Shown piece by piece: positions 51,900 to 52,253 of a stretch of 64,000 nt of DNA. Below the pieces are notes generated by a model that saw nothing but the letters and a program-made list of their open reading frames with translations, ran no database searches and was not told the origin of the DNA. This DNA is from Acidobacteriota bacterium (GTDB taxonomy: Bacteria; Acidobacteriota; Terriglobia; Acidiferrales; UBA7541). Location of the stretch: assembly GCA_013289825.1 (NCBI GenBank), contig JABCZF010000011.1:1-64000 (forward strand), given 5' to 3'. Position 1 is the first letter of the stretch; each line of letters starts with the position of its first letter. The position numbers and the translations under genes were made by a program.

Positions 51900-52253
51900 C
51901 TAGCTCAGCAACTTCCTGAAAGCCTCTTCGTCGTAGCCAAGAACAATTTGGTCGCCACGAATGACAACCGGCCGACGGATCAGATTGGGCACTTTCGCCA
52001 TCAACTTGATGGCTTCCGGCCTCGTCGGCGGCTTCTCTTTCATATTTCTCGCTCTGTACAGTTCATTGCGTGGGTTTAGAAAATGTTCGTAGTCGCGAGA
52101 GGCGATTAGCTTGTCGAGTTCGGCTTCGCTCAAGCGTTCTTTGTCCAAGTCGCGAGTGTCAAGTTCGGCGCCATGCTCGAGCAAGAAACTTCTTGCTTTG
52201 CGGCAAGTCGTTCAAGTTGGTTTCTCAAGAAACCGCAATTTCACTTTCTTCAT
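51900..52253 (-). CDS. ArsC/Spx-like thioredoxin-fold protein with in-frame UGA at redox Cys (candidate selenoprotein)
   Basis: Manual translation from ATG 52253: MKKVKLRFLEKPT[UGA]TTCRKARSFLLEHGAELDTRDLDKERLSEAELDKLIASRDYEHFLNPRNELYRARN...VIRGDQIVLGYDEEAFRKLLS. UGA at 52214-52212. Confidence 0.75.
52180..52197 (-). promoter_or_regulatory. candidate bacterial SECIS apical stem-loop
   Basis: Minus-strand AGCAAGA-AGTT-TCTTGCT: 7-bp stem, tetraloop with G in position 2, loop starting 22 nt after UGA. Confidence 0.5.

What the first reader, a model, noticed from the sequence alone, without database searches (positions are those of the whole stretch)
51900..52253. Candidate selenoprotein: ArsC/Spx-like protein with in-frame UGA at the first Cys of CxxC
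Seen directly: the ORF track starts this protein at 52184, lacking its N-terminal strand and redox motif. Extending on the minus strand to ATG 52253 gives MKKVKLRFLEKPT-UGA-TTCRKARSFLLEHGAELD..., a complete ~117-residue ArsC/Spx-like protein. The single UGA lies exactly where family members have the first Cys of CxxC, giving UxxC. The ATG sits 8 nt after the rhodanese stop with a GAGAG SD-like sequence, so 52253 is a credible start. A stem-loop (AGCAAGA-AGTT-TCTTGCT) has its loop 22 nt after the UGA with G at loop position 2, consistent with the general bacterial SECIS layout. Established: Sec commonly replaces redox Cys in thioredoxin-fold proteins and is routinely mis-annotated as a stop or late start. 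Inference: this host decodes UGA as Sec here.
Basis: partly seen in the sequence, partly recalled or inferred. Interest (0 to 1): 0.92.

Follow-up and report, generated by a model that had tools for sequence, protein, structure and literature searches.

The report
Misannotated ArsC/Spx-like selenoprotein in Acidobacteriota
A small redox protein of a soil Acidobacterium carries the rare amino acid selenocysteine at its active site, written as a "stop" codon that gene finders misread; it is well supported and lineage-wide, but ArsC-like selenoproteins as a kind were already known.

Summary
The finding holds. The minus-strand frame 52253-51900 gives a 117-residue ArsC/Spx-like protein whose only in-frame stop is UGA at codon 14, the first Cys of CxxC. 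Of 42 copies examined, 30 (27 distinct sequences) have TGA at that codon and 12 have TGC/TGT; none has any other codon. All 30 UGA copies fold a hairpin with GU in its apical loop just after the UGA. Of the 12 Cys copies, 11 do not; the twelfth keeps a degraded remnant. Synonymous divergence falls from about 0.65 to 0.26 exactly over the hairpin, while codons on both sides evolve as protein (pN/pS about 0.22). The genome has selA, selB and selD, and a second in-frame-UGA gene, formate dehydrogenase alpha, with the same AGUU loop. selC is missing from this 86.6%-complete assembly but present in most relatives, including 22 of 24 of the same genus. Gene order is conserved around Sec and Cys copies alike, and the label needs six changes on the tree. 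The predicted fold is ArsC/Spx-like, but Spx's key RNA-polymerase contact is missing and no specific NCBIfam cut-off is met. Most likely it is a UxxC thiol/selenol oxidoreductase working beside a rhodanese. New member of a known kind.

The parts
51900..52253 (-). ArsC/Spx-like selenoprotein gene, 117 codons plus TAG stop, read through UGA codon 14
   Evidence: Pfam ArsC PF03960 E=2.7e-17, 63.3 bits versus cut-off 24; pN/pS about 0.22 on both sides of the UGA
52212..52214 (-). TGA codon 14, predicted Sec, first residue of UxxC (UTTC)
   Evidence: TGA in 30 copies, TGC/TGT in 12, nothing else
52180..52197 (-). SECIS hairpin AGCAAGA-AGTT-TCTTGCT; conserved GU of the apical loop at 52189-52188
   Evidence: absent from 11 of 12 Cys copies
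52257..52261 (-). GAGAG Shine-Dalgarno-like sequence before ATG 52253
   Evidence: by eye
52262..52585 (-). Single-domain rhodanese gene directly upstream, probably co-transcribed
   Evidence: Pfam Rhodanese E=3.6e-17; adjacent to both Sec and Cys copies in most same-genus loci
52632..53450 (-). Enoyl-CoA hydratase family gene, conserved neighbour
51239..51847 (-). Stand-alone 3-hydroxyacyl-CoA dehydrogenase NAD-binding domain protein, conserved downstream neighbour

Best explanation
A genuine selenoprotein gene. When the ribosome reaches UGA codon 14, the hairpin 15-32 nt after the codon is bound by SelB carrying Sec-tRNA, and Sec is inserted instead of termination (strongly supported by comparison, not shown by experiment). 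The product is a 117-aa thioredoxin-fold protein of the ArsC/Spx superfamily with U14-T-T-C17 at the N-terminus of the first helix. Inferred: the Sec selenolate is the attacking nucleophile in thiol-disulfide (or persulfide) exchange and Cys17 resolves the selenenyl-sulfide. It probably works with the adjacent rhodanese in thiol or sulfane-sulfur redox metabolism rather than as an arsenate reductase or an Spx transcription regulator. Sec and Cys versions replace one another in the same genomic slot.
For: Conserved single TGA with Cys orthologues at the same site. Hairpin in 30/30 UGA copies with GU in the loop, against 1/12 Cys copies. 92.6% of cells paired against 42-58% in slid registers, four pairs with double changes. 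Synonymous suppression at codons +3 to +10 only in UGA copies; pS 0.65 / 0.26 / 0.67 upstream / over / downstream of the hairpin with pN/pS about 0.22 on both outer sides. selA, selB, selD in the genome over curated cut-offs. tRNA-Sec (anticodon tca) in relatives. Second in-frame UGA gene, formate dehydrogenase alpha, with an AGUU hairpin. AF2 model pLDDT 91.7; Foldseek best hits Spx, YffB and ArsC at TM 0.7-0.84.
Against: selC is not in this genome's assembly. The assembly is 86.6% complete and relatives have it, so a gap is the simplest reading, but this was not shown: selC flanks differ between the two relatives read, and a flank search found nothing. No expression or proteomic data. For single sequences the hairpin is only moderately unlikely under synonymous shuffling (p 0.002-0.18); the strength is in the set. 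The substrate and the partnership with rhodanese are inference.
Confidence: 0.95

Rival explanations
1. Pseudogene, sequencing error or assembly error: TGA replaces TGC/TGT by mistake or decay.
For: A single-nucleotide change separates TGA from TGC/TGT; selC is missing from the assembly.
Against: The same TGA occurs in 30 copies from many genomes, no other in-frame disruption, purifying selection on both sides, and a covarying hairpin that goes with TGA.
Confidence: 0.01
2. UGA is a real stop; the true product is the 94-aa protein from TTG 52184, or the UGA plus hairpin is a regulatory device with re-initiation.
For: Gene finders call it, and ten database entries share the late start. Some termination at UGA under low selenium is normal for selenoprotein genes (general knowledge).
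Against: The late product lacks the first strand and the whole redox motif. The 8 codons tested before the UGA evolve as coding and align with the N-terminus of Cys orthologues.
Confidence: 0.02
3. UGA is read as another amino acid by a suppressor or a reassigned code.
For: No direct decoding evidence exists.
Against: Only Cys replaces it, exactly at a catalytic redox Cys; Sec machinery and a second Sec-type gene are present; window genes use TGA as an ordinary stop, for example the rhodanese.
Confidence: 0.01
4. The protein is a Sec-containing Spx-type transcription regulator that binds the RNA polymerase alpha subunit.
For: Closest fold and profile hits are Spx; database names say Spx/MgsR.
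Against: Spx G52 falls in a two-residue gap and R47 aligns to Gly/Ala (importance of these residues from general knowledge). It is 117 aa against 131, and the NCBIfam Spx cut-offs are not met.
Confidence: 0.1
5. The protein is a genuine arsenate reductase.
For: ArsC Pfam family; E. coli ArsC structures match at TM about 0.7-0.8.
Against: TIGR00014 scores 36.9 against a cut-off of 106; the neighbours identified here are not arsenic genes.
Confidence: 0.07

Closest known systems
ArsC-like selenoproteins of bacteria (Zhang et al. 2006, PMC1794560; GOS 'Arsenate reductase 2', cd03032, UxxC, PMC2398784; review PMC9312934, COG1393 UxxC)
   Same: COG1393/Pfam ArsC protein with Sec at the first position of UxxC, a bacterial SECIS and Cys homologues.
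   Different: The examples named in the passages read are deltaproteobacteria and marine metagenomes; none names this family in Acidobacteriota, beside a rhodanese, or its Sec/Cys alternation. Whether it is the same subfamily as cd03032 could not be tested, since those sequences were not held.
NCBIfam NF041106 ArsC_rel_Se_1, ArsC family (seleno)protein
   Same: ArsC-family selenoprotein model.
   Different: The window protein scores 35.9 bits against a cut-off of 85, so it is outside this model.
Spx (Bacillus subtilis; PDB 1z3e)
   Same: Best structural match (TM 0.84) and CxxC at the same place.
   Different: G52 absent, R47 replaced, shorter C-terminus, Sec in place of Cys10.
Bacterial SECIS of formate dehydrogenase
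   Same: Small stem with GU in the apical loop; this genome's own FDH alpha gene has an AGUU loop. E. coli fdhF has AGGUCU (from memory), the same six letters as in most relatives here.
   Different: Different stem sequence; loop starts at nt 22 here, nt 19 in this genome's FDH gene.

Membership tests
Bacterial selenoprotein gene | In-frame UGA aligned with Cys in homologues, coding on both sides | tested here: met
Bacterial selenoprotein gene | SECIS-like stem-loop immediately 3' of the UGA with conserved G in the apical loop | tested here: met
   bSECISearch itself was not available
Bacterial selenoprotein gene | Host has selA, selB, selD | tested here: met
   all over curated cut-offs
Bacterial selenoprotein gene | Host has selC (tRNA-Sec) | tested here: inconclusive
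   Not in the 86.6%-complete assembly; scores over 55 bits in most relatives, tca anticodon in all 11 checked
Bacterial selenoprotein gene | Sec in the purified protein | not testable with these tools
   Needs 75Se labelling or mass spectrometry
ArsC (PF03960) superfamily | Pfam gathering score; thioredoxin fold with ArsC insert | tested here: met
   63.3 bits versus 24; Foldseek
Spx transcription regulator | NCBIfam cut-off and alpha-CTD contacts G52/R47 | tested here: not met
   56.8 versus 123 bits; G52 in a gap, R47 aligned to Gly/Ala
Spx/MgsR family model TIGR01617 (arsC_related) | Curated cut-off 75.05 bits | tested here: not met
   74.1 bits, narrowly below, with Sec read as Cys
Glutaredoxin-coupled arsenate reductase TIGR00014 | Equivalog cut-off | tested here: not met
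   36.9 versus 106.05 bits
NF041106 ArsC_rel_Se_1 | Subfamily cut-off | tested here: not met
   35.9 versus 85 bits

The most novel reading that the evidence does not exclude
A Sec-dependent persulfide (sulfane sulfur) reductase or acceptor paired with a rhodanese: a selenium-based sulfur-relay pair conserved across a soil lineage, in which Sec and Cys versions swap in place.
Probability: 0.2. Interest if true: 0.6.

Novelty: new member of a known kind. Interest (0 to 1): 0.42.

Why it matters
It adds a well-supported, lineage-wide selenoprotein to Acidobacteriota whose active site current annotation removes. The locus offers a natural experiment: orthologues in one conserved gene neighbourhood alternate between Sec with SECIS and Cys without (six changes on the tree), including Cys copies that still carry a decaying SECIS. 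That makes the cost and direction of Sec/Cys exchange directly testable.

Tried and rejected
Pseudogene or sequencing error. Other genes with this SECIS in the genome: the next hit scored 18 bits against 70, and none of the sites examined looked like a selenoprotein gene. SelW/Rdx family in the genome: none. Locating selC through its flanks: no match, and the flanks differ between the two relatives read. Plasmid search gave only distant Spx/ArsC proteins; the best listed is 36% identical. L073, which first looked like a UGA copy without SECIS, folds a shifted hairpin with AGUUC in its loop. Literature search for Solibacter with SECIS: nothing.

Full report
Observation. The minus-strand sequence 52253-51900 is as described. 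It reads as 117 codons with one in-frame TGA at codon 14 and a TAG stop. The ATG follows the rhodanese stop by 8 nt, with GAGAG before it. Automatic ORF calling starts at TTG 52184 and loses the redox motif. With TGA read as a residue the product matches Pfam ArsC at 2.7e-17.

Relatives. A protein search of 41 related genomes found a match in 24, most with a single TGA inside. Adding named public genomes gave 42 copies around the motif: 30 TGA, 7 TGC, 5 TGT. No copy has TAA, TAG or any other codon there. Names of close records place the lineage in Acidobacteriota (Candidatus Acidiferrum / Acidiferrales); one UGA copy is in a Deltaproteobacteria-labelled MAG that is placed in Myxococcota (L077). 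Copies are not all independent; 27 of the 30 UGA sequences are distinct over 48 nt.

Coding. In 16 closely related UGA copies, pN/pS is 0.215 in the 8 codons before the UGA and 0.22 in codons +12 to +79. Both sides are therefore under protein-level selection.

SECIS. All 30 UGA copies fold a hairpin with GU in its apical loop just after the UGA; 11 of 12 Cys copies do not. The consensus is GCAAGAGGUCUCUUGC; the window and L038/L077/L080 have GCAAGAAGUUUCUUGC, a compensatory change of the pair next to the loop. L081, L082, L084, L085 and L073 keep a GU-loop hairpin with quite different stem letters, some in a shifted register. On the locked alignment, 92.6% of cells pair (42.1-57.7% in slid controls), with four pairs changed on both sides. 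Synonymous change is suppressed at codons +3 to +10 in UGA copies and not in Cys copies (the Cys codon at +3 is the exception, low in both); pS over the SECIS codons is 0.26 against 0.65 and 0.67 on either side. For single sequences the p-value against synonymous shuffles is modest (0.002-0.18). Two Cys copies look like Sec-to-Cys changes that left traces: L072 keeps AAAGGTCTCTTGC, and L086 keeps GCAAGAAGCTTTCTTGT.

Machinery. The genome has selB (354 bits), selA (554 bits) and selD (350 bits), all over curated cut-offs. tRNA-Sec was not found in its assembly (86.6% complete), but matches of 55 bits or more, well above the ordinary-tRNA background, occur in all but six of the 41 genomes (G000, G015, G021, G028, G034, G038); ARAGORN names tRNA-Sec with anticodon tca in all 11 checked. 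Within the genus only this genome and two low-completeness ones (63% and 73%) lack it. The same genome has a formate dehydrogenase alpha gene with an in-frame TGA (contig C42 near 27506) in the context ARV-U-HGPTVSSLGPTFGRGAMTNGWVD, followed by GGTCTCA-AGTT-TGGGACC. Formate dehydrogenase alpha is a classical selenoprotein (general knowledge; also listed in PMC1794560), and its hairpin has the same loop letters as the window gene.

Context and evolution. The order uracil-DNA glycosylase - enoyl-CoA hydratase - rhodanese - ArsC(U/C) - 3HCDH_N - macro domain is kept, in whole or in large part, in most loci of the genus, around Sec and Cys copies alike. On a protein tree without the Sec column the Sec/Cys label needs six changes, at least three of them forced by well-supported branches. 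Direction was not resolved because the root is a midpoint.

Fold and function. The AlphaFold2 model is confident (pLDDT 91.7) and matches Spx, YffB and ArsC structures at TM about 0.7-0.84. Residue 14 sits just before the first helix (15-26). The Spx interface residue G52 falls in a gap and R47 aligns to Gly/Ala; that these matter for alpha-CTD binding is general knowledge. NCBIfam cut-offs for Spx, ArsC, TIGR01617 (narrowly) and the ArsC selenoprotein model NF041106 are not met. A UxxC thiol/selenol oxidoreductase associated with the rhodanese is the best reading; substrate and partner are inferred from family and neighbourhood only.

Known kind. ArsC-like selenoproteins were listed in 2006 (PMC1794560), 'Arsenate reductase 2' with UxxC (cd03032) in 2008 (PMC2398784), and COG1393 UxxC in a 2022 review (PMC9312934). 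The finding is therefore a new, lineage-wide member of a known kind rather than a new kind of selenoprotein. Only openly licensed papers were searched, so an earlier mention in Acidobacteriota cannot be excluded.

Noticed in passing
G000 contig C42 near 27506 (L163:1942): Formate dehydrogenase alpha gene with in-frame TGA and an AGUU-loop hairpin, a second selenoprotein gene of this genome.
   Followed up: yes
L072:1713 and L086:4028: Cys-encoding orthologues that keep remnants of the SECIS hairpin, as if changed from Sec to Cys.
   Followed up: partly
G010 contig C2 1112064-1112158 and 1115713-1115807: Two strong tRNA-Sec matches (60.9 and 66.2 bits) about 3.6 kb apart in one genome.
   Followed up: no
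L062:116-1486: An ORF that looks like a phage-type integrase (judged by eye) ends beside the tRNA-Sec gene (1497-1595, opposite strand), suggesting selC may be an integration site in this lineage.
   Followed up: no
L068: Record labelled Betaproteobacteria carries a copy with the same protein sequence as that of Acidobacteriota genome G006 (L019), with the same neighbours; probably mislabelled or misbinned.
   Followed up: no
window 51239-51847: Stand-alone 3HCDH NAD-binding domain protein of about 200 aa, apparently without the C-terminal domain, conserved next to this locus in many relatives.
   Followed up: no
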